Shown piece after piece: positions 3,636 to 19,479 of a DNA stretch of 64,000 nt (positions are counted from its first letter, which is position 1; every line of letters starts with the position of its first letter). Made by a program: the position numbers and the translations under genes. This DNA comes from Chromobacterium violaceum ATCC 12472 (GTDB taxonomy: Bacteria > Pseudomonadota > Gammaproteobacteria > Burkholderiales > Chromobacteriaceae): positions 2,799,752 through 2,863,751 of the forward strand of contig NC_005085.1 of the NCBI RefSeq assembly GCF_000007705.1. Direction: 5' to 3'. The notes beneath the pieces are model-generated. The model was not told the DNA's origin, did not search any database, and saw only the letters and a list, made by a program, of their open reading frames with translations.

Positions 3636-3688
3636 GAAGCATCCAGTTCTTGATAATCTGACAGTCGCCGTCGTTTCGGCAGACAACG

Positions 3689-3910
3689 CTAGGGGTGATA
3701 TCTGCGCCACAAGATGGCGATGACTCGGCCAGCTTGTACGCAGGCAACTTGCAGCAGGGCGATCTCCTGCCGCCGTTGCAAACTGTGCGGTTGGCTCAGT
3801 TGCTGTTTCAGTTGCGCTTCCCCGGCTTCCAGCCGGGCGAGCAGCGCATCGCGCACCGCGCCATGCACGTCCCGCCGCAGCGCGTCTTCCAGATGAGTGA
3901 TACGGGCCAT
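3689..3910 (-). CDS. ssaE: SsaE/YscE-family small T3SS chaperone
   Basis: A 73-aa, Leu-, Gln- and Arg-rich helical protein. Its C-terminal RVIAILWRRYHP strongly resembles the NIINIIYYRYHN motif that ends the conserved part of Salmonella SsaE. YscE/SsaE proteins work with a TPR co-chaperone to keep the needle subunit or translocators soluble in the cytoplasm. AAGGA lies ahead of the ATG at 3910. It follows sctD by 20 bp, giving the SPI-2 order ssaB-C-D-E. The needle gene and TPR partner are not in the window. Confidence 0.75.
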   Translation of the reverse strand: MARITHLEDALRRDVHGAVRDALLARLEAGEAQLKQQLSQPHSLQRRQEIALLQVACVQAGRVIAILWRRYHP

Positions 3911-3930
3911 GGTTTTTCCTTATTGGCGAT

Positions 3931-5154
3931 TTACAGATGAAGTGGAATGGAAACCAGCCGCTGCTCCTGTATCAGGGTCAGCGCGGTGTGGCTCAGCGCA
4001 TAAATCCGGTAGCCGCTGGGCAAGGTGCCGCCTTGCTGCAGACGCATGCCATTGGCCAGTTCCACATAAATGGAGTTGGCGTTGCCGCCCACGCTGACGA
4101 TGGCCGCAGGCAAGATATTCGCCGCCGGCGCTGCGGCGGGGATGTTCTGGAAACGGGCTTTCAGCCGCGTGCCGTCCGCATTGAAGGCCGCTGCCTCCGC
4201 CGCTACCGCGCGGGCCCGCTCAGGAGGCAGCTGTCCGCTGATCAGCAATTCCTGGCCGGACACGCCGATGCTCAGTCCGTCCAGCAGACGCTGGCGACTC
4301 AGCCGATCGACCAACCGGCCGAACAATTCGGCTCGATCATTAACCACACGCCAGCCATTCAGCGCAGATATCGCCCTCAGCTGCGTACTCGCGCGCAGCC
4401 AGGCGGCATTGGCCTGGATCGCGCCGTGGATAACAACTTGATCTGGCTTGGCTCCGGCGCTGACTTCCACTTCGCGGTAGCCGTTCAATTCCAGCACTTG
4501 GCGAACCTGGCGGCGCAAGGTGTCGGCGTCCAGGCTCTCGTCACTGAAGTTCAAGCCTTGCTCACGCATCCGGCCCCGCAGCCGCTCGATGGCTTTCGAT
4601 GAGGCGCACAAGCCACTCAAACGGACCACGCCGCGCTCATCCCATTCGGCTTTCACACCCGACAGGCCTGGGTCGGCCATTTCCCGCGCCAGCCAAGCCC
4701 GCGCATCAAACAGCGGCGGCTCGACCGGCTTGGGCCACAGCAGCACCGCTGTCGCCAATGCGGCGCAAATCAGCACGATGCCTCCGGCCAAACGCCAGGA
4801 GCGGGCCGCGGGCTTAGTCGTGGCGACTTCAGGCAGCCGTCGGGACGGCAGCGTCAACATCGCCAAAGCCGCATCCGCTTCGGCCAGCACCAGCCCCTGT
4901 CCGGCCAGGTCTATCGCCTGCCCCAACGGCAGCGCCTGGCCAGCATCCCACGGCAAACCCTCTACCCACACTGGGACCGGCGGCGCCATCGTCACGCCTT
5001 CCGGCGTCACGGTCAGCACGGTCGCGGCCCCCTCTTCCAGCGCCAGCGCGATATCCGGGTCGTCGCCGCCCAAGCGGAGCTCACCGGCAGGCAATTCCAA
5101 CTCCCGCCCCGCCAGCGGGCCGTTCAGCCACTTCAGCTTGAACAAATATTCCAT
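3931..5154 (-). CDS. sctD: T3SS inner-membrane ring protein SctD (SsaD type)
   Basis: The 407-aa product has the SctD layout: a cytoplasmic FHA-like domain (about residues 1-110, starting MEYLFKLKWLNGPLAGREL), one membrane segment near residue 125-145 (GIVLICAALATAVLLW) and a periplasmic region of ring-building repeats (residues 150-407). SctD forms the outer ring of the inner-membrane basal body and docks onto SctJ and the secretin. A GTG at 5160 is an alternative start two codons upstream. It sits 12 bp downstream of sctC and 20 bp upstream of ssaE. Confidence 0.85.
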   Translation of the reverse strand: MEYLFKLKWLNGPLAGRELELPAGELRLGGDDPDIALALEEGAATVLTVTPEGVTMAPPVPVWVEGLPWDAGQALPLGQAIDLAGQGLVLAEADAALAMLTLPSRRLPEVATTKPAARSWRLAGGIVLICAALATAVLLWPKPVEPPLFDARAWLAREMADPGLSGVKAEWDERGVVRLSGLCASSKAIERLRGRMREQGLNFSDESLDADTLRRQVRQVLELNGYREVEVSAGAKPDQVVIHGAIQANAAWLRASTQLRAISALNGWRVVNDRAELFGRLVDRLSRQRLLDGLSIGVSGQELLISGQLPPERARAVAAEAAAFNADGTRLKARFQNIPAAAPAANILPAAIVSVGGNANSIYVELANGMRLQQGGTLPSGYRIYALSHTALTLIQEQRLVSIPLHL

Positions 5155-5166
5155 TTTCACTGCGCC

Positions 5167-6654
5167 TTAGGACTGAACCGCGGGTTCGGCCTTGATCAGG
5201 AATAGGCGAACGGTGCTGCGGCTATTTTTCTGGGTAGAGCGGAACAATTTGCCTATCAGCGGGATATCGCCCAGCAACGGAATCTTGCTCTCGCCCTCGC
5301 TATGCTCGTCCTGGACAAACCCGCCCAACAACAAGCTTTGACCGGCTTTCAGCAGTGTCTGGGTGGACACTTCAGCATTCAGCGTCTGCGGCAGCGGCTC
5401 ATGCTGGCTGACCGTGCCGGCCTGGCGGCCATCCTGAATCACCAGCGTCAACATCACGTTGCGCTGGCCGCCTTCATCAACCAGCCGCGGTGTGACCCGT
5501 AGCAGAGAGCCGGTGGAGATGGATTCCAATTTGGCGACTTTTTCCGCCAACAGCTTGGTGTAGAACGTGATGTTGCGGTCCAGCACCGCCTGGGTGTTAT
5601 CCAGCGTCACAACAGAAGGACGGGACAGGATCTGCGCCTTGGCCTTCTGTTGCAGCGCATTGAGCTTGACCATGAAGCCACCGGTGTTGGAAATCACGGT
5701 GGAGAAATTGTCCGAGCCTTGCTGACCAGCACTGTTGAAACTGATGCCGTTGCCGCCGATGCTGGCCGATGCCGACCAATCGATGCCCAATGCGCTCAAA
5801 TCTTGGGAATTGACATCGATGATCATCACCGACACCTCAATCAACGCCGGTTTGCGGTCAAACTGCTCAATCAAACTGGCATATAGCGGCATATTGATTT
5901 TGCGATCACGCACAATGACCGCGTTCTGGCGCGGATCCGCCGAGAACATCGGCAAGCTGCGGTCGGTCGGCGGCTGCTGGCCTTGGTTTTCCTTCAATGG
6001 CAGCGTGCGGCCCTGCGCCATGTCCTTCAGCACGCTCACCACCCCCGGCACCGCCACCTGTTGGCCGCGATAGCTGTAGCTGCCATCCGCCGCGGTAGCG
6101 TATTTCAACGGGAACAGCTGGATGATTTCCTGGTTTTGTTCGTGATTGAGCTTCTGCTCATCAATGCGCTTGGCCAGCTGTTCCACCCGGTTGAGGCAAA
6201 TCGGCACGCCATGCACCTCCATCGCGTTGGACGCCGGCACCGCGCGCACCCGGCAATAGCGCCGGTCCAGAATGCCGCTGCCCTGCAATTGGCTGATCAA
6301 AGTGCTCACCTGCAGATAGGCGGGGGTGATCAGCTGGCTGCTCACTTCTTGCGCTTTGTAAACGTAGATGGCTTGCCCGTCGTAATACCATGCCAGCTTA
6401 TGCAGGCGCGCCAGCTGATCCAGCGCCTGCTCCGGCGGCATGCTGCGGATCGCGCCGATAAAGGGCTCGTCGACCTGCTTGCTTACCACCACCGGGACGC
6501 TGTAATTGGCGCCCAGATCGCGCAGCACATCCGCCAGCTTGCTGCCGCGAGTGGACAGGAAAAATGGCGCGCTACTCTGCCATGGGATAGCTGCGAACGC
6601 CTGTGCGCAAGTCAATGCGACCAAGCCAGGGCCAAGCCATTTCGATGCTCTCAT
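5167..6654 (-). CDS. sctC: T3SS outer-membrane secretin SctC (SsaC type)
   Basis: A 495-aa secretin. A signal peptide (MRASKWLGPGLVALTCAQAFA) precedes N0/N1-type periplasmic domains (about 25-190) and the secretin barrel domain (about 240-490) with hallmark stretches such as VPGVVSVLKDMAQG, QILSRPSVVTLDN and IPLLGDIPLIGKLFR. It forms the outer-membrane ring of the injectisome. The start was set at 6654 because its ATG overlaps the ssaB stop (ATGA) and has GGGAGG in front, so translation is probably coupled. Confidence 0.93.
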   Translation of the reverse strand: MRASKWLGPGLVALTCAQAFAAIPWQSSAPFFLSTRGSKLADVLRDLGANYSVPVVVSKQVDEPFIGAIRSMPPEQALDQLARLHKLAWYYDGQAIYVYKAQEVSSQLITPAYLQVSTLISQLQGSGILDRRYCRVRAVPASNAMEVHGVPICLNRVEQLAKRIDEQKLNHEQNQEIIQLFPLKYATAADGSYSYRGQQVAVPGVVSVLKDMAQGRTLPLKENQGQQPPTDRSLPMFSADPRQNAVIVRDRKINMPLYASLIEQFDRKPALIEVSVMIIDVNSQDLSALGIDWSASASIGGNGISFNSAGQQGSDNFSTVISNTGGFMVKLNALQQKAKAQILSRPSVVTLDNTQAVLDRNITFYTKLLAEKVAKLESISTGSLLRVTPRLVDEGGQRNVMLTLVIQDGRQAGTVSQHEPLPQTLNAEVSTQTLLKAGQSLLLGGFVQDEHSEGESKIPLLGDIPLIGKLFRSTQKNSRSTVRLFLIKAEPAVQS

Positions 6655-7040
6655 ACCCGCCTCCCAGCTGCCGAGCCAATGGATGAAACCGAAGAAGCAT
6701 GCTTGACCAGCCAGGCCACCACGGCCAGTTGCTGATTCAATGTGGCTTCCCACTCGACGGCACTGAGACCATGCTCATGACGGCGGACCAGATATAGTTT
6801 GCCGCGCTCGAGCAATAAGCCATCATCCAGATTGGTGCGTATCGACGCCAGCCATAGACAAACGCGCTGGAGCCAGGCGTCATCCAAGACCTCCAGTTCG
6901 ATTTCAATAGCCAACGTGATTCCTTGCGGATAGGACCATCCCCAAGCGGGGACGCCTGCCAGATCCAGGAGCCAGCGATCACTGCGGGGCGAGAGCACGC
7001 AAACCCATTCCAATGCGGCCAAAGAGTCAGGAAGTTTCAT
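6651..7040 (-). CDS. ssaB: SsaB/SpiC-like T3SS cytoplasmic switch protein
   Basis: A 129-aa protein with no signal peptide, directly before sctC and overlapping it by 4 bases, the position ssaB (spiC) holds in Salmonella SPI-2. The pattern of a WLLDLAGVPAWG segment near residue 25, an acidic middle and a C-terminal helix (LNQQLAVVAWLVKH) resembles SpiC. In Salmonella SpiC acts with SsaM and SsaL to hold back effectors until translocators are exported. Similarity is weak by eye; a CesT-type chaperone is the main alternative. An SsrB-type inverted repeat lies 58 bp upstream. Confidence 0.6.
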   Translation of the reverse strand: MKLPDSLAALEWVCVLSPRSDRWLLDLAGVPAWGWSYPQGITLAIEIELEVLDDAWLQRVCLWLASIRTNLDDGLLLERGKLYLVRRHEHGLSAVEWEATLNQQLAVVAWLVKHASSVSSIGSAAGRRV

Positions 7041-7098
7041 CGCGTCTCGATTACGTTGGGGAAGGCTGACATTGTGCGAAGATCGTCAGCGGAGATTT

Positions 7099-7116
7099 AT
7101 CAGGTGATGACCTGAA
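7099..7116 (-). promoter_or_regulatory. 7-4-7 inverted repeat, putative SsrB operator for ssaB-sctC
   Basis: On the minus strand it reads TTCAGGT-CATC-ACCTGAT. It lies in the 217-bp region between the divergent ssaB (start 7040) and ssrB (start 7258), oriented towards ssaB. Two almost identical copies lie at 10962 and 16640. The 7-4-7 geometry matches the palindrome described for Salmonella SsrB. Assignment to the local SsrB is inference. Confidence 0.6.
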
Positions 7117-7257
7117 ACCCTGCGTAGCGACGCCCCTTCTCTTTTTTACTTGCGCTCTTGACTGCCTACTTACTTACGGTACTTGACGGAATCGGTAGAG
7201 GATCAATACTCTGATGAGGACATTCCTAAAATCAGCGATGCCAAATAGGTAGACATC

Positions 7258-7911
7258 ATGATGACGCCAGCCGCCCCTTCCGACGCTGCCGTACAACGGG
7301 TACTTTTGGTAGAAGACCATTCCCTATTGAGCAATGGCATCAAAAACCTGTTATCGGCATTGCCAAGCTATCATGTGGTCGGTGAAGTCAATGATGGTCT
7401 GGGAGTCTATTCCGCCTGTCAGCGGTTAATGCCGGATTTGGTATTGCTGGACTTGGGTTTGCCAGGCATGGATGGCATCGACGTCATTCGCCAATTGAAA
7501 CAACGCTGGCCGGAGCTGAACATCATCGTGATCACCGCCGACAGCGCCGAACATAGAGCGCGGGCGGCGCTGGATGCGGGAGCGCTCGCCTATGTGCTGA
7601 AGAAAAGCCCGCAACAGACTTTGCTGGCCGCGCTACAGATTGCATCCCAGGGTCATATTTTCCTCGACCCGTCCCTCGATCTGGAACAAATCACCGAAAC
7701 CCGCAACGTGGAAGGCCCAACCCGGCTGACCATGCGGGAAAACCAGGTGCTGAAGCTAATCGCGGAAGGCATGCGCAACCGGGACATCGCGGAGAGTCTG
7801 AAAATCACCATCAAGACAGTGGAAACCCACCGGCTGAATCTGATGCGCAAACTGGATGCCCACAATGCGGTAGAGCTGACCAACTGGGCGATCCGACTAG
7901 GCATACACTAG
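7258..7911 (+). CDS. ssrB: NarL/FixJ-family response regulator, SsrB-like
   Basis: A 217-aa two-domain regulator: receiver domain (about 13-130) with phospho-acceptor Asp65 in LVLLDLGLPGMDG and the conserved Lys in YVLKKSP, then a LuxR-type helix-turn-helix (about 155-215, LTMRENQVLKLIAEGMRNRDIAE). In Salmonella SsrB activates SPI-2. Lying inside the SPI-2-type cluster and facing an SsrA-like kinase supports that role. There are two ATGs in tandem at the start, with AGGTAG upstream. It is transcribed alone, divergently from ssaB and convergently with ssrA, unlike the tandem ssrAB of Salmonella. Confidence 0.88.
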   Translation: MMTPAAPSDAAVQRVLLVEDHSLLSNGIKNLLSALPSYHVVGEVNDGLGVYSACQRLMPDLVLLDLGLPGMDGIDVIRQLKQRWPELNIIVITADSAEHRARAALDAGALAYVLKKSPQQTLLAALQIASQGHIFLDPSLDLEQITETRNVEGPTRLTMRENQVLKLIAEGMRNRDIAESLKITIKTVETHRLNLMRKLDAHNAVELTNWAIRLGIH

Positions 7912-8105
7912 CTCGGAGGTTTGCTTGCCCAAAACCGAAGAAAAGAAGAAGGTTAGTTAGGCCCAAGCACAGATCCATCGATGTGAGTCCGGCCCGCATG
8001 AAATCATCCCCAAAGCGGTGAAGCGGGTCCGCGAATGCGCGCCACTTCATGGAGTCGACGCGCTATTGCCGGCATTCAGTTGTGACGAAGCGTGTACAGA
8101 TGTTG

Positions 8106-10880
8106 TCATTGCATGGAGTCGCAACCATCGGCTTTCAGCAATTCTCGTAACCTGTCTATGTCTCGCCGACTTGGCCAGGCATCTTTCATGATTCCACCCT
8201 CCAGCCGTTCGCAAACCAGATGCACGCTTTCCATCCCAGCCAGGCCCGCGCACCCCTTCAACGCATGGAGCGCTTCCAACAGCTCCTGTGATTCTCGCGC
8301 TTCCCATGCCTTGCCGATGCGTTCGCCAAACAACAGAAGGGTCGCGCCCAACTCCTCGCGAAGCTTGTTATCCACCAGTTCCAGCATCGGTTTTTGCAAC
8401 TGGGCATTCGGCATCAATTCAGCGCCTCGGGCCAGTTGCAAGGATACCGCCAGCTCAATCGCCGCCATCAACTGCTCCAAACTCAGCGGCTTGGGCAAAT
8501 AACCACTCATTCCCGCCGCTTTGGCCCTCTCCCCCTCTCCGGATATCGCATTGGCTGTCAGCGCGATGATGGGGACCTCGGCATCCAGAACATCGGCGTC
8601 CGAGTCGCGCCAGCGCCGCGTCGTCTCATAACCATCCATATCCGGCATGCGCACGTCCATCAGCACCAGATCGTAGACAGCCTGCCTCCCATGCTCCAAC
8701 GCCTCCCGGCCGGAAGCAGCCGTTTCCACCTTGTGTCCCAGCTCGAGCAACATCCGGCCGACAATATCGCGATTGACGCTGACATCGTCCACCAACAATA
8801 CCTTCAACGACCACGGGCACAAGGAGAGCGGCGCGGAAACATCTTCAACCAACTCCTCATTATGGATGATAGCCTGCAAAATCCGCCATAAACGCCACGG
8901 CAAATACGCCAGAGATGGTGACTCCAGGCGTGAATCCTCTCCTTCTTGCGGTTCGATTCCCCACATGCGTAATTGTGGATGCAAAGCTTTTGGCGCGATG
9001 AAAGGACCGGAGAGTTTTTCTAGCACAGCAAGCGAATCACTCAATGGCAGCATCAAAGTAAAACAAGATCCCTTTCCCAGTTCGCTCTGCAGCAAGATTT
9101 CTCCGCCCATCAAATTGGACAGCCGGGAAGCGATGGTCAATCCCAGGCCATTGCCGCCATTATGCATATGAACCTGAACAAATGGTCGAAAAATATCCAG
9201 TTGCTTGTCTTCCGCAATGCCTGGGCCCGTATCCTCAATGGAGATCGCCAGCATGTCTCCCTTGCGCGCAACCAGTACGCTAATGTGCCCGCTCTCGGTA
9301 AACTTGACCGCATTGCCTAGCAGATTGATTAGAATTTGCTGCACCCGCATGCGATCCATAGCCATTTCAGCCGGAACCTCATCTGTTACCAAAACTCTTA
9401 GCGCCAAATCTTTTTCTTGGGCCCGCAAATGAATGGTCAACATGACCTGATCCAGTACCTGCAAAACAGATACGGATTCGTATGACAACTCCAGCTGGCC
9501 CGCTTCGATATGGGAAAAGTCCAGCAAATCATTAATTATGATCAGTAGATAATCCGTGGAAAACCGCGCAGTATCGATGAGCTCTCTTTGCTGCAATGTG
9601 AGTGTACTGCGCTGCAACAAGCTCAATGCGCCCACCACCCCATTCAGTGGTGTGCGTATTTCATGACTGATGCTGGCAATATGCTCACTCTTACGCCGGC
9701 TCATCAGCTCTGCTATTTTTCTGGCCTCGTCCAACTCTTGGGTGCGCTTATGCACACGTGCTTCCAGTGTCCGATAGTGGGACCGAATCGTGGCCAACAG
9801 CTTATTGTAGGCCTTGGCTATGCGACCCAATTCATCCTGGCGGTTGTCTGGCAGACGGTAATCTAAATTCAACAGCTTGAAACGATCTATCACCGCAATA
9901 ATCCGCTGCAAAGGACTGCCCACTTGTAGCTTAAGCACCAAAAACGTAATGACCAGCAGCATAAACAGCATTATGACGGTTGATGGCAAGGTTCCAAGTA
10001 GTAGGTCCAAAGACTTGCTTGCCACTGCACGCTGTGGATATCTGGCGACCATGCTCCATGGAGGCCCCTTAAAGGGCTTGCATACATAGTAAAAATCATC
10101 AATCCGGACAGAGACGTCTTCATTGCAAGATGGGAAATGGGCGGCAGGAAAATCTTCGAAAGGAATCGCTTTATCCGTCGTCGCTATAGGTAGCCATTCT
10201 CCATCATAGGTCAACATCGCAAAAGAAATATCGTTTCTCAACTCATGATTCGGCATGGGCATCCGCCAAACTTCAACATTCTTGCCTATCATCACTCCGG
10301 TGTCAGGCTGAATTTCGGCAACGGAAACATATAATTTATTAGTAACATCCCAAAAGGGCCTGCCCCAGTGAAAACCATGCGTACCGGGCGTATTGGCAAG
10401 CTGGCTAAGTATACGCATCCTTTTTTGCAAATAGACATCGGACATAGAGTTTGGATTAAAGAAAACAAACCCTTGCTTCGGCAACATTACGAAAGTCGAT
10501 TCGTGATCGCTTCCGTTCTCATCGCCGAATATCTCCACAATCTGCATTGCTTTTTTCAGCTGTTGCGGATCGGGCTTTGCCCCAGAAAATGGCACAAATA
10601 CCGTTCGTTCGACGGCGACGTCAAGATCCGCTTCACTTTTCATCGATGCCCATAAAGTAGATAGGGTATGAATGCGCCGCTCAGCCTGTTCATAATGGTT
10701 GCTCTCATCATTTACCGAAGCGCTGAGTTCCAATGAAAGCTCATTGCGGATAATGCTTTGCGTGCTGATATAACGCGAATAAAAAACAATGCATTCCGAG
10801 GAAAGCCAAAAAATGATGATGACACAGCCAAGCGTGATGACTAGACGCCAGGTCAGAGCGGTTTCCCATAATTTTTTCAT
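8106..10880 (-). CDS. ssrA: Tripartite hybrid sensor histidine kinase, SsrA-like
   Basis: A 924-aa kinase: N-terminal membrane helix (about 10-30), large periplasmic sensor (about 30-300), second helix near 310-335, HAMP, HisKA with SISHEIRTPLNG (about 405), HATPase with a GNGLGLTIASRL-type G box, receiver domain (LVLLMDVRMPDMDG-like acceptor site near 750) and a C-terminal HPt domain (LHALKGCAGLAGM). This is the SsrA/ArcB architecture. A TTG at 10910 is open in frame, but ATG 10880 (MKKLWETALTW) gives the better membrane-anchor start. Its G+C is lower than the structural operon's. The partner is presumably SsrB, although the two genes are convergent with a 194-bp gap that shows no clear terminator. 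Confidence 0.87.
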   Translation of the reverse strand: MKKLWETALTWRLVITLGCVIIIFWLSSECIVFYSRYISTQSIIRNELSLELSASVNDESNHYEQAERRIHTLSTLWASMKSEADLDVAVERTVFVPFSGAKPDPQQLKKAMQIVEIFGDENGSDHESTFVMLPKQGFVFFNPNSMSDVYLQKRMRILSQLANTPGTHGFHWGRPFWDVTNKLYVSVAEIQPDTGVMIGKNVEVWRMPMPNHELRNDISFAMLTYDGEWLPIATTDKAIPFEDFPAAHFPSCNEDVSVRIDDFYYVCKPFKGPPWSMVARYPQRAVASKSLDLLLGTLPSTVIMLFMLLVITFLVLKLQVGSPLQRIIAVIDRFKLLNLDYRLPDNRQDELGRIAKAYNKLLATIRSHYRTLEARVHKRTQELDEARKIAELMSRRKSEHIASISHEIRTPLNGVVGALSLLQRSTLTLQQRELIDTARFSTDYLLIIINDLLDFSHIEAGQLELSYESVSVLQVLDQVMLTIHLRAQEKDLALRVLVTDEVPAEMAMDRMRVQQILINLLGNAVKFTESGHISVLVARKGDMLAISIEDTGPGIAEDKQLDIFRPFVQVHMHNGGNGLGLTIASRLSNLMGGEILLQSELGKGSCFTLMLPLSDSLAVLEKLSGPFIAPKALHPQLRMWGIEPQEGEDSRLESPSLAYLPWRLWRILQAIIHNEELVEDVSAPLSLCPWSLKVLLVDDVSVNRDIVGRMLLELGHKVETAASGREALEHGRQAVYDLVLMDVRMPDMDGYETTRRWRDSDADVLDAEVPIIALTANAISGEGERAKAAGMSGYLPKPLSLEQLMAAIELAVSLQLARGAELMPNAQLQKPMLELVDNKLREELGATLLLFGERIGKAWEARESQELLEALHALKGCAGLAGMESVHLVCERLEGGIMKDAWPSRRDIDRLRELLKADGCDSMQ

Positions 10881-10961
10881 AATCCAAATAATCCTGAAAC
10901 CGATGCGCAAGGGGCGCCCCTATCCCTTTTGCAAAGTTAAATCATACGGTACGTCTACTCC

Positions 10962-10979
10962 TTCAGGTATTCACCCGAT
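10962..10979 (+). promoter_or_regulatory. 7-4-7 inverted repeat, putative SsrB operator for ssaM-sctV operon
   Basis: Reads TTCAGGT-ATTC-ACCCGAT on the plus strand, 112 bp before the ssaM ATG, in the 211-bp region between divergent ssrA and ssaM. Both half-sites are identical to those of the copy at 16640. It could also control ssrA, whose start is 81 bp away on the other side. Confidence 0.6.
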
Positions 10980-11091
10980 AGTCCCACTCCGAGCATTTTT
11001 AGATCATAGCCCGAGCCTGGCGCCTTTGCCGCTTAGCACCCGATGCCGGACTTTCGGCCGAGCCCACCCACCACCACCTCAGAGAAGCCTG

Positions 11092-11457
11092 ATGGAATTA
11101 CAAACCGCACGGCGGCTGGAGCAGTTTCTTCAGCTGTCCGAGCTGCCCACGCCCCGTGTCGAACCGCGGATGGAGTTCTCCATGCCACCGTTCCGGCTAT
11201 ACATCGAATACCTGGACGGCCGGGTCCTGCTGTCGTTGGCCCGGAGCATCGAACATGTTCACCAGAGTGAAGCCTTGAAACGCTTGCTGGCATCCTGCCA
11301 ACCGGCCAGAACCCAGGGCACGCCATTGCGCGCCTATATTCTGCGCGATCAGCAGGTACTGAGTTGCGCCCCCTCCGCAGGCAGTGAAACCAACCATTGG
11401 CTCGCCTGTGTGCAAACCATGCGGCGCCTGCTCGAAGCTACGGCTGGAGAAGCCTGA
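11092..11457 (+). CDS. ssaM: SsaM-like T3SS secretion switch protein
   Basis: A 121-aa protein resembling Salmonella SsaM along its length: N-terminal RLEQFLQLSEL, central FRLYIEYLDGRVLL and C-terminal YILRDQQVLSCAPSAGSETNHWL, comparable with LFLLRDGLAMSCSPPLSSSAELWL. SsaM works with SpiC/SsaB and SsaL to order translocator before effector secretion. It is immediately upstream of sctV with a 1-base TGATG overlap, as in SPI-2. The start at 11092 has GAGAAG in front. The frame is open further upstream, but homology begins at this Met. Confidence 0.8.
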   Translation: MELQTARRLEQFLQLSELPTPRVEPRMEFSMPPFRLYIEYLDGRVLLSLARSIEHVHQSEALKRLLASCQPARTQGTPLRAYILRDQQVLSCAPSAGSETNHWLACVQTMRRLLEATAGEA

Positions 11458-13508
11458 TGAACCAGATCAAATCCTTCCTGATGATGGCGGCCGGGCGACA
11501 GGATATCGTCCTGGCGGTCATGCTGCTGGTGGCCGTGTTCATGATGATCATTCCATTGCCTACCGGCCTGGTGGACTTCATGATCGCGCTCAATCTGATG
11601 ATCGCCGTCATCCTGCTGATGATGTCGCTGTACATCCGGGAGCCGCTGGAATTTTCAGCCTTCCCCTCGGTATTGCTGATCACCACCCTGTACCGCTTGG
11701 CGCTGACCATCAGCACCACCCGGCTGATCCTGCTGCAAGCAGACGCCGGTGAAATCGTCTACACCTTCGGCAGTTTCGCGGTGGGCGGCAACCTCGGCGT
11801 GGGCTTGATCGTATTCGTGATCATCACCGTGGTGCAATTCATCGTCATCACCAAGGGTTCGGAGCGGGTGGCGGAGGTCAGCGCCCGCTTCTCGCTAGAC
11901 GCCATGCCCGGCAAGCAGATGAGCATAGACGGCGACATGCGCGCCGGGGTCATAGACGCCAACGAGGCGCGCCGCCTGCGCGGACTGGTGCAAAAGGAAA
12001 GCCAGCTGTACGGCGCGATGGATGGTGCGATGAAATTCGTCAAGGGCGACGCCATCGCCGGCATCATCATCATCCTGGTGAACATCCTGGGCGGCACCGC
12101 CATCGGCGTGATGATGCACGGCATGAGCGCGAGCGCGGCCCTGTCCACCTATGCCATCCTGTCGATCGGCGATGGTTTGATCGGCCAGATACCGGCGCTG
12201 CTGATTTCCATCACCGCCGGCACCATCGTGACCCGGGTGCCGGGCGAGCAAAGACTGAACCTGGCCAGCGATTTGACCGACCAGATCGGCAAACAGCCGC
12301 AGGCCCTGCTGCTGGCCGCGTCGGTGCTGCTGGTTTTCGCGCTGATTCCCGGCTTCCCAGCCATCTACTTCATCATTCTCGCCGCGATGGTCAGCGCCGC
12401 CGCATGGTGGGTGAAAAAGCGCAAGCGTGCCGCCAGGAGCGACTCCACGGGCTCGCCCTCCTCCGAATCTGGAGCCGATGCCGGCGGCGAGACCGCCAAT
12501 ATGTCGCCCGGCGCCACGCCGTTGATGATGCGCCTGTCGCCTGACCTTATCCGTTCCAGCCGCCTGCCGGCGCTGCTGGACACCTTCCGGCACGGCAAGT
12601 TCGAGCAGTTGGGCATTCCACTCCCGGAAATCCAGCTGCAGAAGGACGCTTCACTGGCTGCCGGCACATTGCAGATTCTGCTGTACCAAGAACCGGTGTT
12701 GACAGTTTCGCTGCCCGAGCGGCTATTGCTGGCCGACATCGCCTCGCCCAAGCTGCCGCAATCCGAGCAGACCGACAAGCTGCCTTTCGGCAATCTGAGC
12801 CTGCAGTGGCAGAGCCCGACGCAAAAAGAAGCCTTGTCCGCCATCGGCGTCCAGCTGCATCAGGATGAAGACCGGATCGTTCATTGCCTGTCCATCATCA
12901 TCGACCGCTACGCCGCCGAATTCGTCGGTGTGCAGGAAACCCGCTTCCTGATGGATGCGATGGAGTCGAAATACGCCGAGCTGATCAAGGAAGTGCAACG
13001 CCAGCTGCCCATCGGCCGCATCGCCGACGTGCTGCAGCGCCTGGTGGCGGAAGGCGTGTCCATCCGCGATCTGCGCAGCGTGTTCGAGGCCTTGATCGAA
13101 TGGGCGCCGCGGGAAAAAGACCCGGTCATGTTGCTGGAATACGTCCGCATGGGCCTGCGCCGGCACATCGTCACGCGTTACCGCGCCGGACAACCCTGGA
13201 TCAGCGGCTGGATGATAGGCGACACCATAGAAGGCATGGTGCGCGAAGCGATACGGCAGACTTCGGCGGGCTCCTACTCGGCGCTGGATCCTGAGCATAA
13301 CCAGGCCATCATGAGCTGCATCCGCGAGGCCGTCGGCGACGCGGAGAAACGCAATCAGGTGCTGATCACGGCGATCGACGTGCGGCGATTCCTGCGCAAG
13401 GTGGTAGAGAGAGAATTCTTCAACTTGCACGTGTTGTCGTTTCAGGAAATCGGCGAAGAAGCGGAATTGCGCGTGGTCGGCAATATCGACCTGATCGGGG
13501 AGTATTAG
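11457..13508 (+). CDS. sctV: T3SS export gate protein SctV (SsaV type)
   Basis: A 683-aa FHIPEP-family export gate. Eight predicted membrane helices fill about residues 15-330, with the family loop [16 protein letters not shown] near 150; a cytoplasmic ring domain follows (about 370-683), including [20 protein letters not shown]. The nonameric SctV ring couples proton motive force to export and selects substrates. The start overlaps the ssaM stop by one base; the stop lies one base before sctN. Confidence 0.95.
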
Positions 13509-13509
13509 G

Positions 13510-14844
13510 ATGCGGCTTCCAGACATCCGTCTCATCGAAAACACGCTGCGGGAACGACTGACCCTGGCCCCGGCACCGCCTGGGCAACGCTCCGGCGTGG
13601 AACTATTCGGCCGGGTCACGGAAATCGGCCCCACCCTGCTGAAAGCCTCGCTGCCCGGCGCCAGCCTGTCGGAGTTATGCCGGCTGGAACCTTCCGGCAT
13701 CGAGGCCGAAGTGGTCGCCGTCACTGGAGACCACGTGATGCTATCGCCATTCAAAGAACCGCTGGGCGTCACCATCGGCAGCCGGGTCAGGCCTTCCGGC
13801 AGCCCACACCAGTTGCGCCTGGGCGATTTCCTGCTGGGGCGGGTCGTCGACGGACTCGGCCGTCCGCTGGATGGCGACGAGCTTCCCGCCGACAGCGAGC
13901 TGCGCAGCCTGGACGGACCCGCGCCCAATCCGCTGACCCGGCAATTGATAGACACGCCGCTGCCGCTGGGCGTCAGGGCCATCGATGGCTTGCTGACTTG
14001 CGGCATGGGTCAGCGCATCGGCATCTTCGCCGCGGCGGGCGGCGGCAAGAGCACGTTGCTGGGCATGATCTGCGACGGCAGCCTTGCCGACGTCATCGTG
14101 CTGGCGCTGATTGGCGAACGGGGCCGTGAGGTGCGTGAATTCCTCGAACATACCTTGTCGGAGGAGGCTCGGTCCCGCTCCATCGTAGTGGTGTCGACAT
14201 CGGACCGTCCGGCGCTGGAACGGCTGAAAGCCGCCTACACCGCCACCGCCATCGCCGAGCATTTCCGCGACCAGGGTAAGAACGTACTGTTAATGATGGA
14301 CTCCCTGACCCGTTTTGCCCGCGCCTCGCGCGAGATCGGCCTGGCCGCGGGAGAACCCGCCGCTGCCGGCGGCTATCCGCCAAGCTTCTTCGCCCGCCTG
14401 CCCCGCCTGCTGGAACGGGCCGGTCCGGCTGAAACCGGCAGCATCACCGGCATCTACACCGTTCTGGTCGAGGGCGACAACCTCAACGAACCAGTCGCGG
14501 ATGAAGTCCGCTCCATTCTGGATGGCCACATCGTGCTGTCGCGCAAGCTGGCCGAGACCAACCACTACCCGGCCATCGATATCGGCGCCAGCGTCAGCCG
14601 GATCATGGGCCAGATCGTCAGCGCCGAACACCGCCAACAGGCCGGCAAATTGCGCCGGTTGATGGCCGCGTACAAGGAAATCGAGCTATTGGTCCGGGTG
14701 GGTGAGTACCAACCTGGCCAGGATGCAGAAGCGGACGAGGCGCTGGAACGCAAGGACGCGATCCGGCAATTCCTTTGCCAATCCGTCACCGAAAAGAACG
14801 ACTTTGAAGAAACACTGGAACAGCTATGGCAGACAGTCGACTGA
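13510..14844 (+). CDS. sctN: T3SS ATPase SctN (SsaN type)
   Basis: A 444-aa F1/FliI-type ATPase that strips chaperones and unfolds substrates at the export gate. The Walker A site is [12 protein letters not shown] with Lys180; [11 protein letters not shown], a Walker B-type [13 protein letters not shown] and a conserved [19 protein letters not shown] stretch follow. Full family length. It starts one base after sctV and its end overlaps sctO by 19 bp. Confidence 0.96.
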
Positions 14845-15206
14845 CCTTGGCCACTCTGCTGTCTCTCAAGCAAAGGCGCGAACGCGGCATCCGGGCGGCC
14901 ATCGCCAAACTGGAACAGCGGGAAGCCGATCTGAACGGCCATAAGCAGCAGCTGTTGCAAGAGCGGCAGCAGCTCTGGCGCCAATGGCGCAATTGCGGCG
15001 CCGCCGAGCAAGTGCTCGATCAGCAGGAATGGCAGTCGTTCAAGTCCCAGCTGGCCGACTACTACCACCTGGATCAATGCCTGCTCGAGCAAGTGGCGGC
15101 GACTGACAAGCAATGCGCCGATCTGCAAATTGCTAAGGCGGAGCAGCGGCAGTTGTTGCGCCAGGCCCTGCTGGACCAGGAAAAATTCAAGCTTTTGATG
15201 GAGTGA
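14826..15206 (+). CDS. sctO: T3SS central stalk protein SctO (SsaO type)
   Basis: A 126-aa, almost entirely charged coiled-coil protein (heptads from [25 protein letters not shown] to the C-terminus). SctO is the FliJ-like stalk linking the ATPase hexamer to SctV. Identification rests on the coiled-coil character, length and position between sctN and sctP. Confidence 0.82.
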
Positions 15207-15208
15207 AC

Positions 15209-15691
15209 ATGGATATCTTCCCCTTGCATCTGCGCCGCTACGCCAGCCAGATGGACGACAACACGCATCATGGCCCGTCCGACGAGCATGACGAAAAACA
15301 TTTCGCTGCCCTGATGGCGGCTGCGGAAACACAACCCGACCCTCAGCGTCAACGGCCTAACGCCGGCGCCTGGATCGATTTTGTAACGTCCACCGCGGGC
15401 CCGCGCCTATCTGCGAGTCAATCTACATCCGCGCAGGAACAACCATTGCCACAGGCCGCGGCTAATAAATTGGACCATCTGCGATTGCGGCTGACCAATG
15501 GCCCGCTGGCCGGCCTGGAACTGGAGGCCGAATGTCATGGCATCGAGTTGCTGATCAAGCTGCGTTCGCTCGATCTGCAAGCATGCCGTCACGCCTTCGG
15601 CAGCGCATCCGAACTGGAATGCATGTTGAGCCAGCAGTTCGACCGCCCCGTGCAGATAGAGGTGATAGATGCCAATTCCCCGCTTAAGTAA
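15209..15691 (+). CDS. sctP: T3SS needle-length/substrate-switch protein SctP (SsaP type)
   Basis: A 160-aa protein in the ssaP slot. The N-terminal half is polar, Gln/Pro/Ser-rich and probably disordered; the C-terminal half (from about residue 85, LRLRLTNGPLAGLELEAE) resembles the substrate-switching domain of SctP proteins. A GTG at 15203 is an alternative start overlapping sctO, but ATG 15209 has GGAG at good spacing. It is short compared with SPI-1 InvJ, which fits the short ssaP family. Its end overlaps sctQ by 23 bp. Confidence 0.72.
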   Translation: MDIFPLHLRRYASQMDDNTHHGPSDEHDEKHFAALMAAAETQPDPQRQRPNAGAWIDFVTSTAGPRLSASQSTSAQEQPLPQAAANKLDHLRLRLTNGPLAGLELEAECHGIELLIKLRSLDLQACRHAFGSASELECMLSQQFDRPVQIEVIDANSPLK

Positions 15692-16634
15692 GGAAACCGG
15701 CCTGCTGTTGAGCAAGGTCGGCCATGGCCGGCGGCTGGATTCCGCCGACGGCAGCCTGATCCTGTCCTTCAACCACCGCGAGGCTGGCCCAGGACTGAGC
15801 CTGATCGCCCAGTTGGATGACCAGCCGGTAAGGCTATGGATGGCTGAGGCCCAATGGCTGCAATGGGTAGAGCCCATGCTGTCCCTCCCCTCCTGGGACA
15901 TGGCCCCGCCCGATTTGCGCGAATTGCTCGCCGTCTGGACCCTTGCCGACGCAGGCAGCGGCCTGGACGACCTGGGTCTGCCTTGGCCGCAGGCCACGCG
16001 CTTGGAACCGGAACCCATCGATGCGGGCATGGGTTGGCGGCTGAGGATTCTGCGGGATGAGCGACAGCTTGATCTATTGGTGCGGGACGCCCCCCAGTCC
16101 TGGCTGGACGCCGTTGCCGAACAGGCCTATCCAATAGAAATGGATGAAACGGAGACGGCCATTACAGCAGGCGTTTCGCTGATCGCGGGCTGGAGCATGG
16201 TGGAAATGGCCTCCGTTCGCAAGCTGGTCGTCGGCGATGCGCTGCTGCTGCGCTACAGCTTCGACGTTGCGGCCGGGAAATTCGGACTATTCAATCGACA
16301 GCCGATCGCCAGCCTGATGCAGGACGGCGAAACCGGTATTTTCACCGTGGAGACTCTGATGAGCGATTTTGAAGACTGGATGGATATCACCCCGACCCTC
16401 AGCCCAGCGGAAGAGCAGGCCCTGGGCGACGCCATGATCACCGTCACCGTGGAAGTGGCGAAGATGGAACTCCCCTTGCACCAGCTGGGCAACCTCCAAC
16501 CCGGCACCCTACTCTCCAGCGCGGTCAGCAGCGACGGCCTGGTCACGTTGAAGGCCGGCAGCCGTCCTATTGCCCGCGGCACCTTGCTGGACATCGACTC
16601 TCGCCTGGCGGTACGGATCGAGCACCTGTGCTGA
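15669..16634 (+). CDS. sctQ: T3SS sorting-platform protein SctQ (SsaQ type)
   Basis: A 321-aa SctQ protein. The C-terminal SPOA domain (about 245-321) contains VEVAKMELPLHQLGNLQPGTLL and ends RLAVRIEHLC, typical of the family. SctQ builds the cytoplasmic pods that dock cargo to the ATPase complex. The start lies inside sctP. A well-formed internal start at codon 231 may give a separate C-terminal product. Confidence 0.88.
   Translation: MPIPRLSKETGLLLSKVGHGRRLDSADGSLILSFNHREAGPGLSLIAQLDDQPVRLWMAEAQWLQWVEPMLSLPSWDMAPPDLRELLAVWTLADAGSGLDDLGLPWPQATRLEPEPIDAGMGWRLRILRDERQLDLLVRDAPQSWLDAVAEQAYPIEMDETETAITAGVSLIAGWSMVEMASVRKLVVGDALLLRYSFDVAAGKFGLFNRQPIASLMQDGETGIFTVETLMSDFEDWMDITPTLSPAEEQALGDAMITVTVEVAKMELPLHQLGNLQPGTLLSSAVSSDGLVTLKAGSRPIARGTLLDIDSRLAVRIEHLC
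16347..16634 (+). other. Probable internal translation start giving a short SctQ (SctQ-C)
   Basis: GGAG at 16349-16352 stands 6 bases before an in-frame ATG at 16359 (codon 231 of sctQ, MSDFEDWMDI). A product from there would be 91 aa and hold the complete SPOA domain. Salmonella SsaQ and Yersinia YscQ are known to make such short forms, which join the full-length protein in the sorting platform. Confidence 0.6.
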
Positions 16635-16639
16635 GACGG

Positions 16640-16657
16640 TTCAGGTATCTACCCGAT
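16640..16657 (+). promoter_or_regulatory. 7-4-7 inverted repeat, putative SsrB operator before sctR
   Basis: Reads TTCAGGT-ATCT-ACCCGAT, with half-sites identical to the copy at 10962. It begins 5 bases after the sctQ stop and ends 59 bp before the sctR ATG, in the only sizeable gap (82 bp) of the sctV-sctU operon. It may mark a second promoter for sctRSTU. Confidence 0.6.
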
Positions 16658-16716
16658 GGGAGGCTGGCGAACACAATTGAATAATGAGGATATTCAATGT
16701 TACGCCGGTTTTCCCC

Positions 16717-17367
16717 ATGTCCTTACTAGACCAACCGCTGCAATTAATCGTCTTGCTGTTCGCTCTGTCCATTCTGCCGCTACTGGTTGTACTGGGCACT
16801 TCGTTTCTCAAGCTGGCCGTTGTGTTCGCGCTGCTGCGCAACGCATTGGGCATCCAGCAGATTCCGCCCAATATCGCCCTGTACGGGCTGGCGCTGATTT
16901 TGACCTTGTTCATCATGGCGCCGATAGGCTTGGAGATTCAGGACAATCTGATCGCCCACCCGATCAAGATCGAATCCCCAGCCTTCATCCAGCAGGTCGA
17001 ATCTGGTGTCTTCACCCCGTACCGCGTATTCCTGGAACGCAACACCGCTCCGGAACAGGTGCACTTCTTCGCCGACATCGGCCATCAGATCTGGCCTGAG
17101 AAATACCAGCAGAGGATTCCTGACAATTCGCTGCTGGTGCTGATGCCGGCCTTCACCGTGAGCCAGCTGATCGAAGCGTTCAAGATCGGCTTGCTGCTGT
17201 TTCTGCCCTTCGTCGCGATAGATCTGGTGGTATCCAACGTGCTGCTGGCCATGGGCATGATGATGGTATCGCCGATGACCATATCCATGCCGCTGAAACT
17301 GTTGGTTTTCGTTCTGATGAACGGCTGGGAAAAGTTGCTGGGCCAGCTGGTTCTTTCTTTTTCCTGA
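16717..17367 (+). CDS. sctR: T3SS export apparatus protein SctR (SsaR type)
   Basis: A 216-aa FliP-family membrane protein with four predicted helices and signature stretches LRNALGIQQIPPNIALYGLAL and AMGMMMVSPMTISMPLKLL. Five SctR subunits form the core of the export pore with SctS and SctT. The ATG at 16717 (MSLLDQPLQL) matches the SsaR N-terminus (MSLPDSPLQL) but has no clear ribosome site; an in-frame ATG at 16684 would add 11 residues. Confidence 0.92.
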   Translation: MSLLDQPLQLIVLLFALSILPLLVVLGTSFLKLAVVFALLRNALGIQQIPPNIALYGLALILTLFIMAPIGLEIQDNLIAHPIKIESPAFIQQVESGVFTPYRVFLERNTAPEQVHFFADIGHQIWPEKYQQRIPDNSLLVLMPAFTVSQLIEAFKIGLLLFLPFVAIDLVVSNVLLAMGMMMVSPMTISMPLKLLVFVLMNGWEKLLGQLVLSFS

Positions 17368-17382
17368 GACGGGGAGACCATT

Positions 17383-17652
17383 ATGAGCGAAGCCATGATC
17401 GCCCAGCTCGCCACGCAGATGATGTGGCTAGTGCTACTGTTGTCGCTGCCCGTCGTCGTCGTCGCCTCTTTCGTCGGCGTGCTGGTCAGCCTGGTGCAGG
17501 CGCTGACGCAGGTGCAGGACCAAACGGTGCAATTCTTGGTCAAGCTGCTCGCCGTGTCGGTCACGCTGGCCATGACCTATCACTGGATGGGCGACGTGCT
17601 GCTCAATTACGCGGGATTGGCATTCGATCAGATCACGCAAATGCGGGACTGA
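17383..17652 (+). CDS. sctS: T3SS export apparatus protein SctS (SsaS type)
   Basis: An 89-aa FliQ-family protein with two membrane helices (LVLLLSLPVVVVASFVGVLV and LLAVSVTLAMTYHWM) and the family stretch LVQALTQVQDQTVQFLVKL between them. Four copies wrap the SctR/SctT pore. GGGGAG precedes the ATG; it ends one base before sctT. Confidence 0.93.
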   Translation: MSEAMIAQLATQMMWLVLLLSLPVVVVASFVGVLVSLVQALTQVQDQTVQFLVKLLAVSVTLAMTYHWMGDVLLNYAGLAFDQITQMRD

Positions 17653-17653
17653 C

Positions 17654-18427
17654 ATGGTCTACTGGACGCAATGGCTGCCGGTGCTCGGCCTGTGCATGCT
17701 GCGCCCGCTGGGTGTCTTTCTGCTGATGCCGCTGTTCAGCACCGCCAATCTGGGCGGCGCGCTGATCCGCAACTCGCTGGTGCTGATGATCGCTCTGCCC
17801 CTGCTGCCGGTTTACCCGCAATGGCAGCTGCCCGCTGCCGGCGCCTGGGGCTATGTCCTGCTCGCTGCCGGAGAAATATGTATCGGGCTCATGATCGGCT
17901 TCTGCGCCGCCATCCCGTTCTGGGTGCTGGACATGGCCGGTTTCCTGATAGACACCATGCGCGGCTCGTCGATGGCCAGCGTGCTGAACCCCTTGCTGGG
18001 CCAGCAGTCCTCGCTGTTCGGCCTGCTGTTCACTCAGATATTCGGCGTGCTGTTTCTGATCAGCGGCGGCTTCAATGAATTGCTCGAAGCGATTTACCAG
18101 TCCTACGTGACCCTGCCGCCCGGCGCCGCCATCCACTACTCGCCCGAAGCCCTGTCGTTCTTCTATCGTCAATGGCAGCTGATGTACGAGCTGTGCCTGC
18201 GCTTTTCCATGCCCGCCATCGTGGTCATCCTGCTGGTGGACATGGCGCTGGGCCTGGTCAACCGTTCCGCTCAGCAATTGAATGTGTTTTTTCTGTCCAT
18301 GCCGATCAAGAGCGCGTTCGCGCTGCTGATGCTGATCGTCAGCCTGAGCTTCGCCTTCAACGGCTTGCTGGATTACAGCGCGCATTTCACCAAGCTGACC
18401 GACGCCTTGCTGGAGCAGTTGAGATGA
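17654..18427 (+). CDS. sctT: T3SS export apparatus protein SctT (SsaT type)
   Basis: A 257-aa FliR-family membrane protein with about six helices and motifs such as GFCAAIPFWVLDMAGFLIDTMRG and VDMALGLVNRSAQQLNVFFL. A single SctT closes the SctR5 ring. Its stop overlaps the sctU start (ATGA). Confidence 0.93.
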   Translation: MVYWTQWLPVLGLCMLRPLGVFLLMPLFSTANLGGALIRNSLVLMIALPLLPVYPQWQLPAAGAWGYVLLAAGEICIGLMIGFCAAIPFWVLDMAGFLIDTMRGSSMASVLNPLLGQQSSLFGLLFTQIFGVLFLISGGFNELLEAIYQSYVTLPPGAAIHYSPEALSFFYRQWQLMYELCLRFSMPAIVVILLVDMALGLVNRSAQQLNVFFLSMPIKSAFALLMLIVSLSFAFNGLLDYSAHFTKLTDALLEQLR

Positions 18428-19479
18428 GCGAGAAAACCGAAAAACCCACCCCCAAGAAAATTCGGGACGCCCGCAACAAGGGACAGGTGGCCAAGAGCAC
18501 CGAGATCACCAGCGGCGTGCAATTAGCCGTATTGCTCGCGTATTTCTGCTTCGAAGGTCCCCATCTGCTGCAAGCGCTGCAGGGGATGCTCAATGTCGCG
18601 ATCAGCGTCGTCAACCAGGATCTCGTCTTCGGCATCAATCAATTAACCGGCGCCTTCCTCGAGCTCGCCATGCGCTTTCTCGGCGGCATCGCCGCGCTGG
18701 TCATTATCATGACCATCGCAGCGGTCATCGCGCAGATCGGCCCCTTGCTGGCGACGGAAGCGCTGAAGCCGTCGTTGGAGAAGTTGAATCCGGTCTCCAA
18801 CCTCAAGCAGATGTTCTCGATGCGCAGCCTGTTCGAGTTCATGAAGTCCATCTTCAAAGTGACGATATTGTCGCTGATTTTCTTCTACCTGCTGCGACAG
18901 TACAGCCCATCCATCCAATTTCTGCCCTTGAGCGATGTCGCGACCGGCATGCGCGTCAGCACCCAGCTGCTGTTCTGGATGTGGGCTTCGTTGATTGGCT
19001 TTTACATCATTTTCGGCATCGCCGATTTCGCCTTCCAGCGTTACAACACGACCAAACAACTGATGATGTCTCTTGAAGACATCAAGCAGGAATTCAAAAA
19101 CTCGGAAGGCAATCCCGAGATCAAGCAAAAGCGCAAGGAAGCGCATCGCGAGATTCAAAGCGGCAGCCTGGCCGACAATGTTTCCAAATCCACCGCGGTG
19201 GTCCGCAACCCCACCCACATCGCGGTTTGCCTGCGCTACCAGCCCGGCGAAACTCCTCTCCCTCAGGTGACCGCAGTCGGCCGCGATGCGATGGCCTTGC
19301 ATATCGTGAAGCTGGCCGAAAAAGCCGGCATCCCGGTGGTGGAAAACATTGAAGTCGCGCGCGCGCTGGCCGCGAAAACCAAGATCGGCGGGTACATATC
19401 CGCCGAGCTATTCGAACCGGTTGCGCAGATCCTGCGCTTGGCCATGAATATTAACTATGACGATGAAGACGATGATTGA
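18424..19479 (+). CDS. sctU: T3SS autoprotease/substrate switch SctU (SsaU type)
   Basis: A 351-aa FlhB-family protein: N-terminal MSEKTEKPTPKKIRDARNKG, four membrane helices (about 30-210), then a cytoplasmic domain with the self-cleavage site NPTH at residues 262-265. Cleavage between Asn and Pro lets the apparatus switch from needle to translocator export. The start overlaps sctT by 4 bases; its end overlaps the lytic transglycosylase gene by 23 bp, extending the operon. Confidence 0.95.
   Translation: MSEKTEKPTPKKIRDARNKGQVAKSTEITSGVQLAVLLAYFCFEGPHLLQALQGMLNVAISVVNQDLVFGINQLTGAFLELAMRFLGGIAALVIIMTIAAVIAQIGPLLATEALKPSLEKLNPVSNLKQMFSMRSLFEFMKSIFKVTILSLIFFYLLRQYSPSIQFLPLSDVATGMRVSTQLLFWMWASLIGFYIIFGIADFAFQRYNTTKQLMMSLEDIKQEFKNSEGNPEIKQKRKEAHREIQSGSLADNVSKSTAVVRNPTHIAVCLRYQPGETPLPQVTAVGRDAMALHIVKLAEKAGIPVVENIEVARALAAKTKIGGYISAELFEPVAQILRLAMNINYDDEDDD

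What the first reader, a model, noticed from the sequence alone, without database searches (positions are those of the whole stretch)
7099..16657. Three near-identical 7-4-7 inverted repeats ahead of the SPI-2-type operons
TTCAGGT-N4-ACCYGAT occurs at 7099-7116 (minus orientation), 10962-10979 and 16640-16657. Thirteen of fourteen arm positions are identical in all three while the 4-base spacers differ. Each copy lies in an intergenic gap and points to a T3SS operon (ssaB-sctC, ssaM-sctV, sctR-U). I saw none in front of the SPI-1-type genes. The geometry fits the palindrome reported for Salmonella SsrB, so this is a candidate operator set for the local SsrB, with a more conserved sequence than in Salmonella.
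Basis: partly seen in the sequence, partly recalled or inferred. Interest (0 to 1): 0.8.

Follow-up and report, generated by a model that had tools for sequence, protein, structure and literature searches.

The report
SsrB-type switches before SPI-2-like operons
Three near-identical short palindromes are very probably the docking sites through which a Chromobacterium regulator of the SsrB/EsrB family turns on a Salmonella-SPI-2-like secretion system, at a fixed distance from the promoter; this is a well-supported new case of a known switch, not a new kind of system.

Summary
In detail: the three 7-4-7 palindromes are at the stated places and are the only exact copies in the 4.75 Mb genome. (1) The arms of copies 2 and 3 equal, at all 14 positions, the EsrB box printed for Edwardsiella; copy 1 differs at one. 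The local SsrB shares EsrB's recognition-helix stretch. (2) Exact boxes occur in 5 of 8 Chromobacterium genomes with an SsrA orthologue and 0 of 11 without; all 16 sites lie at T3SS promoters, in two lineages whose SsrA proteins are about 40% identical. (3) NANNAT begins exactly 22 nt downstream in all four own copies and in 23 of 25 hand-picked sites of the genus, 0 of 25 in the other direction. The box then sits at about -43.5, a class II activator position, and drives ssaB, ssaM and ssaR rather than ssrA or ssrB. (4) A fourth box, left of the window, drives an AraC-type gene and the needle operon; this recurs in other genera. The boxes are a known kind of operator, newly assigned here; I did not find the fixed spacing in print. 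No binding or transcript data exist here.

The parts
7099..7116 (-). SsrB/EsrB-type box, copy 1 (TTCAGGTCATCACCTGAT), faces the ssaB-SctC-SctD-SctL operon
7071..7076 (-). candidate -10 hexamer CACAAT, 22 nt after copy 1
10962..10979 (+). SsrB/EsrB-type box, copy 2 (TTCAGGTATTCACCCGAT), faces ssaM-SctV-SctN-ssaO-ssaP-SctQ
   Evidence: arms identical to the printed EsrB box
11002..11007 (+). candidate -10 hexamer GATCAT, 22 nt after copy 2
16640..16657 (+). SsrB/EsrB-type box, copy 3 (TTCAGGTATCTACCCGAT), faces SctR-S-T-U and a transglycosylase gene
   Evidence: arms identical to the printed EsrB box
16680..16685 (+). candidate -10 hexamer AATAAT, 22 nt after copy 3; it overlaps the ATG at 16684, so SctR more likely starts at 16717
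7258..7911 (+). SsrB-type response regulator (217 aa)
   Evidence: NF011896 328.7 bits over cut-off 242; DNA-binding domain 47/60 identical to EsrB 7vim, 34/56 to Salmonella SsrB 2jpc
8106..10880 (-). SsrA-type hybrid sensor kinase
   Evidence: NF011874 1197.9 bits over cut-off 852, model position 1 at residue 11 of the longest ORF
2829..7040 (-). operon from copy 1: ssaB by position (129 aa, no NCBIfam hit), SctC, SctD, SctL
11092..16634 (+). operon from copy 2: SycN/SsaM-type chaperone, SctV, SctN, ssaO and ssaP by position, SctQ
16717..20200 (+). operon from copy 3: SctR, SctS, SctT, SctU, transglycosylase (iagB-like)

Best explanation
The palindromes are activating operators for the local SsrB-type response regulator, most probably the protein called CsrB in C. 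violaceum (identity inferred from the name alone). The sensor kinase SsrA phosphorylates SsrB (inferred from the family). An SsrB dimer binds the two inverted ACCYGAW heptamers (inferred). If the NANNAT hexamer is the -10 at -12 to -7, the box spans -52 to -35, centre -43.5, and no -35 hexamer better than 3 of 6 is present; so bound SsrB stands in for the -35 and recruits RNA polymerase (class II activation: geometry shown by sequence, contact inferred). Three such promoters drive the ssaB, ssaM and ssaR operons. A fourth, left of the window, drives an AraC/EsrC-type gene followed by the needle gene and SctJ. The translocon operon has no convincing box and is probably switched on second-hand by the AraC-type protein (inferred).
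For: Arms equal to the EsrB box TTCAGGTaattACCCGAT (PMC12175530, passages). Regulator and kinase pass the NCBIfam models. The stretch KTVETHRLNLMRKLDAHNA is identical in EsrB, and its first 18 residues are invariant in the 7 Chromobacterium SsrB sequences aligned, of 8 genomes that have SsrA. Exact boxes in 5 of 19 genomes, 16 sites, all at T3SS promoters; 5 of the 8 genomes with SsrA, 0 of the 11 without. Promoter positions are kept in a lineage with another gene order. NANNAT at offset 22 in 23 of 25 sites, one more at 23, against 0 of 25 in the other direction; both further exact sites read later also fit. Best -35 match is 2 or 3 of 6 in all 25. Own genome, composite pattern up to 3 mismatches: 3 exact, 1 at two mismatches (the fourth box), one place at three mismatches on both strands; control 1. 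Other genera: NANNNT at exactly 22 in 36 of 64 sites against 10 of 64 away from the gene.
Against: No binding, footprint or transcript-start data. The 25 genus sites were picked by hand; NANNAT was read off the same alignment; two rows facing the translocon operon, shown and without a -10, were left out of the count; one of the 25 (G003:C32:4906) faces a transposase-like ORF before the translocon genes. The Salmonella work says spacing to the start site is not strict (PMC2837388). Of 71 promoters examined in other genera, 4 had no site of 11/14 and 3 no detectable ssaM; NANNNT at 21-23 holds in only 18 of 34 ssaR sites, and other offsets also show peaks (14 of 64 at 33; 12 of 64 at 25 away from the gene). 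G008, G009 and G018 have only weaker boxes. In the EsrB paper the gel shifts used a 200-nt fragment; the box itself was located by motif (passages).
Confidence: 0.9

Rival explanations
1. The boxes are operators of another regulator, such as the AraC-type protein encoded beside the translocon operon or the quorum-sensing regulator CviR.
For: An AraC-type gene lies in the same island and one box is at its own promoter.
Against: The arms equal the printed EsrB box. Boxes of 11-12/14 also stand at ssaR and ssaM in the Salmonella-like genome G699, where a search with the AraC-type protein gave no match at 1e-12. The CviR site as I recall it (CTGNCC-N4-GGNCAG) does not fit.
Confidence: 0.04
2. The inverted repeats act in RNA, as terminators or as leader hairpins.
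For: Seven paired bases around a 4-base loop could form a short stem; copy 3 lies between two genes in the same direction. T runs of 5-6 lie some 15-30 nt away from copies 1 (plus strand) and 2.
Against: No T run directly follows any copy. Copies 1 and 2 are in divergent gaps. The box lies upstream of a hexamer at fixed distance, so it would not be in that promoter's transcript.
Confidence: 0.02
3. The boxes mark relief of H-NS-type silencing or repression rather than class II activation.
For: SsrB in Salmonella is also described as countering silencing (recalled; one title speaks of relieving biofilm silencing). The island is G+C-poor: 0.545 over genome 2778900-2819950, and 54 percent in a review passage.
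Against: A fixed 22-nt distance to a -10 and no good -35 fit an activator that touches polymerase; relief of silencing needs no fixed spacing.
Confidence: 0.04

Closest known systems
EsrB box of Edwardsiella piscicida (EsrA-EsrB)
   Same: 7-4-7 palindrome TTCAGGT-N4-ACCCGAT, identical at all 14 arm positions to copies 2 and 3 (PMC12175530, passages); same recognition-helix stretch; a second regulator, EsrC, under EsrB control (title in a reference list; passages; that EsrC is AraC-type is recalled).
   Different: In Edwardsiella the box is reported at the translocon (escC-eseE) operon; in this genome the translocon operon has no convincing box.
SsrB palindrome of Salmonella SPI-2 and Sodalis SSR-3
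   Same: 18-bp, 7-4-7, at ssaB, ssaG, ssaM and ssaR promoters (PMC2837388, passages and section 9); half-site mCCyTA, five of six positions as in ACCYGA here.
   Different: Fifth half-site base G here, T there. The paper reports a degenerate site, no strict spacing, and 24 palindromes at SsrB-regulated genes or operons. Here only four places in the genome have both box and -10 within two mismatches, all in the island.

Membership tests
SsrB/EsrB operator (7-4-7 box) | 18-bp palindrome of two heptamers with a 4-bp spacer | tested here: met
SsrB/EsrB operator (7-4-7 box) | heptamer sequence of the family (EsrB TTCAGGT/ACCCGAT; Salmonella mCCyTA) | tested here: met
   identical to the EsrB box for copies 2 and 3, one difference for copy 1; five of six bases of the Salmonella half-site
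SsrB/EsrB operator (7-4-7 box) | placed at SPI-2-type promoters (ssaB, ssaG, ssaM, ssaR) | tested here: met
SsrB/EsrB operator (7-4-7 box) | a cognate SsrB-type regulator with a matching DNA-binding helix | tested here: met
SsrB/EsrB operator (7-4-7 box) | direct binding by the regulator and dependence of transcription on it | not testable with these tools
   needs purified protein and a deletion strain
Class II activator promoter | site at a fixed distance next to or over the -35 position, centred near -41 to -44 (range recalled) | tested here: inconclusive
   offset 22 in 23 of 25 genus sites, no -35 better than 3 of 6; but the -10 is predicted, no start site is mapped

The most novel reading that the evidence does not exclude
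A rigid promoter module (SsrB box, 22 nt, -10 hexamer, no -35) is the ancestral control unit of SPI-2-type secretion systems. It travelled with the island between Enterobacterales, Aeromonas, Pseudomonas, Pandoraea and Chromobacterium, with the AraC/EsrC-type gene as its conserved second tier; the absence of that gene and the looser sites in Salmonella-like genomes are derived.
Probability: 0.55. Interest if true: 0.6.

Novelty: new member of a known kind. Interest (0 to 1): 0.45.

Why it matters
Cpi-2 of C. violaceum has no clear requirement in systemic infection so far (PMC5686120, passages). The boxes give it a likely direct regulator and a short list of target promoters in the genome that can be tested. 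The near-fixed 22-nt spacing, seen in several genera, stands against the view of SsrB as an activator without a spacing rule and makes its contact with RNA polymerase testable.

Tried and rejected
A scan at three mismatches is uninformative (7 matches against 4.69 expected). The one-mismatch site at 378431 overlaps the start codon of a GDSL lipase gene. Similar TTCATGT...ACCCGAT matches occur in G002 and G007, which lack an SsrA orthologue, so coding and start-codon constraint explain it best (genes there not checked); rejected as a target. The one-mismatch site at 1515867 is intergenic, but the -10 of its only gene-facing reading abuts the start codon; treated as chance. Off-island boxes in relative G003: those at C35 and C32:4906 lie beside transposase-like ORFs; the one at C3:184420 has TAGAAT at 22 and faces an ORF of at least 495 residues with no Pfam match; left open. 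The class-wide search found SsrA in 1 of 369 genomes, the own one, so enteric genomes were reached around a Yersinia. A 10/14 match before the translocon operon has its -10 over the start codon; rejected. Paper searches: searches listed no paper on a Chromobacterium SsrB site; I saw the listings, and passages of PMC5686120 and PMC10847564. The original papers on CsrB/CsrC and on the EsrB motif (reference 40 of PMC12175530) were not read. On promoter geometry: listings, plus passages of PMC2837388, PMC6136808, PMC12175530, PMC5626973, PMC7991086.

Full report
Observation. Their arms agree at 13 of 14 positions and the spacers differ. The symmetric pattern WTCRGGT-N4-ACCYGAW is found three times in the window and in none of 100 shuffles. 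In the whole genome (one contig, 4,751,080 bp; the size fits C. violaceum ATCC 12472, recalled) these three are the only exact matches. A loose scan at three mismatches is at chance level, so the claim rests on close copies.

Setting. The window holds the right part of a SPI-2-like island (Cpi-2), followed by SPI-1-type genes. NCBIfam names SctC, SctD, SctL, a SycN-type chaperone, SctV, SctN, SctQ, SctR, SctS, SctT and SctU, and the regulator pair passes NF011896 and NF011874. That these two models are SsrB and SsrA is recalled. The island continues left of the window: an AraC-type regulator, the needle protein (PF09392), SctJ and SctW on one strand; on the other, four SseB-like genes (all below NCBIfam's cut-off, three of three scanned over Pfam's EspA cut-off), SseC, SctB2 and SseE. 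A fourth box, ATCAGGTGATCACCGGAT at genome position 2786487, lies at the start of the AraC-needle operon. The longest AraC ORF begins upstream of the box; two later ATGs would put the box at the very start of the gene or outside it.

Test in relatives. SsrA orthologues over the family cut-off occur in 8 of 19 Chromobacterium genomes and, at E 1e-180, in none of the other 42 genomes of the family searched. Besides the own genome, two are close to the own protein (82 and 85%) and five are 39-40% identical. The exact symmetric box occurs in 5 of the 8 and in none of the 11 without SsrA; the reversed control pattern gives one place in each of two genomes. By my arithmetic, five positives all falling within 8 of 19 has a chance of 0.005. 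All 16 exact sites are at T3SS promoters (the G010 ssaR site by its match to that of G003, the G016 ssaB site by the SsrB ORF beside it). In G008, G009 and G018 the same promoters carry weaker forms. The gene order of the distant lineage differs, so the boxes are kept with the promoters rather than with the stretch of DNA. From box to ssaR start there are 56-59 nt in the six genomes measured (my count).

Fixed spacing. I picked 25 sites by hand, in 8 genomes, each read towards a T3SS gene (one, G003:C32:4906, faces a transposase-like ORF first). Two rows, the fourth box read towards the translocon operon in G000 and G012, show no -10 and were left out of the count. Positions 24, 27 and 28 after the box are A, A and T in 24, 23 and 24 of 25. 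NANNAT begins 22 nt after the box in 23 of 25 and 23 nt after in one; the next-best offset has 3 of 25, and the other direction has 0 of 25 at 22. NANNAT was read off the same alignment, so independent support comes from the rest. The own genome alone has four different promoters, all at 22, for which I estimate a chance of about 1e-5. Two exact sites read later also fit: G010 ssaR and G016 ssaB. No -35 hexamer at a 16-18 nt spacer exceeds 3 of 6 matches in any of the 25, while the -10 hexamers match TATAAT at 3-5 of 6 in 24. This places the box centre at -43.5. Copies 1 and 2, which stand in divergent gaps, thus face ssaB and ssaM; ssrB and ssrA have no -10 at that place. The -10 of copy 3 overlaps the first possible ATG of ssaR (16684), which argues for a start at 16717.

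Other genera. Thirteen have 51-72% identity: two Pseudomonas, Aeromonas diversa, three Yersinia, Acerihabitans and six Pandoraea; I did not use the other 67, at 27-43%. A search over 392 genomes around a Yersinia found 38 with SsrA. I followed 28 of those for ssaR, 27 with a match, 19 hand-picked genomes for ssaM and 18 for the AraC-type gene. Of 71 promoters, 64 had a box of at least 11/14; 4 had none and in 3 no ssaM was detected. NANNNT stood at exactly 22 in 36 of 64 and at 21-23 in 47 of 64. Away from the gene the count at 22 was 10 of 64; the largest other peaks were 14 of 64 (offset 33) and, away from the gene, 12 of 64 (offset 25). By gene, 21-23 held in 18 of 34 ssaR, 16 of 16 ssaM and 13 of 14 AraC-type promoters. 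Many ssaR misses carry TATAAC, TATAAG or GATAAC at 21-23. In Aeromonas and in G799 and G577 the scan took a farther box; the one nearer the gene fits at 22. So the spacing is a broad feature with slack of about one base, strictest in Chromobacterium. Related genomes are not independent.

The AraC-type gene. A relative at 1e-12 was found in 14 of 18 genomes searched, and not in the Salmonella-like G699 or in G660, G544 and G591. Its promoter carries a fitting box in 13 of 14. In Edwardsiella EsrC is under EsrB control and binds the translocon operon's promoter (PMC12175530 passages; PMC7991086 passages). The own translocon operon has no convincing box, so a two-tier chain, SsrB to AraC-type protein to translocon, is the best inference.

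Regulator and site. The own DNA-binding domain is 47/60 identical to EsrB (7vim) and 34/56 to Salmonella SsrB (2jpc). The stretch KTVETHRLNLMRKLDAHNA is shared with EsrB, while Salmonella has KTVETHRMNMMRKLQVHKV. That parallels the DNA: the EsrB box in PMC12175530 is TTCAGGTaattACCCGAT, identical in its arms to copies 2 and 3; Salmonella's half-site is mCCyTA (PMC2837388 section 9). In that Edwardsiella paper the shifted fragment was 200 nt and the box was located by motif.

What is known. The 7-4-7 site, its promoters and the Edwardsiella sequence are in print. I found no Chromobacterium assignment in the held library and no paper stating the fixed spacing (listings, with passages of five papers). 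The 2010 Salmonella paper says there is no strict spacing to the start site. The literature names CsrB and CsrC as island regulators in C. violaceum (PMC5686120 passages); I infer these are the present SsrB and AraC-type protein.

Verdict. Shown: sequence, uniqueness, conservation, spacing, family of the regulator. Inferred: phosphorylation, binding, polymerase contact, second-tier control.

Noticed in passing
window 1-2691, continuing left (genome 2793608-2802442, minus): A 2944-residue ORF inside Cpi-2 with Pfam matches to Tox-PLDMTX and Tox-HDC.
   Followed up: partly
L080 (genome 2782917-2786279, minus): Four SseB-like genes in tandem in the translocon operon, two long and two short; one copy is what I recall for Salmonella.
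   Followed up: no
window 20211-21116: About 290 residues matching the C-terminal part of UmuC (model positions 132-422, below the cut-off) between the two secretion islands; probably a remnant.
   Followed up: no
L198 at 1544 and 1691; L199 at 1307 (unnamed relative G003): Three boxes with the Salmonella-like arm ACCTTAT or ACCTTAC in a repeated stretch beside transposase-like ORFs (transposase by eye).
   Followed up: partly
L197 at 1521-1538 (G003:C3:184420): Off-island box TTCAGGTCAACACCTGAG with TAGAAT 22 nt on, facing an ORF of at least 495 residues without a Pfam match: a possible extra target in that relative.
   Followed up: partly
L005 at 1501-1518 (genome 1515867): Intergenic one-mismatch copy before a 431-residue protein with no Pfam match.
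   Followed up: partly
L081:4036-5196 (genome 2792035-2793195): A GbpA-like lytic polysaccharide mono-oxygenase gene inside the secretion island.
   Followed up: no
G432 C206 and C203 (Yersinia aldovae genome): Two SsrA-type kinases in one genome, suggesting two SPI-2-type regulator pairs.
   Followed up: no
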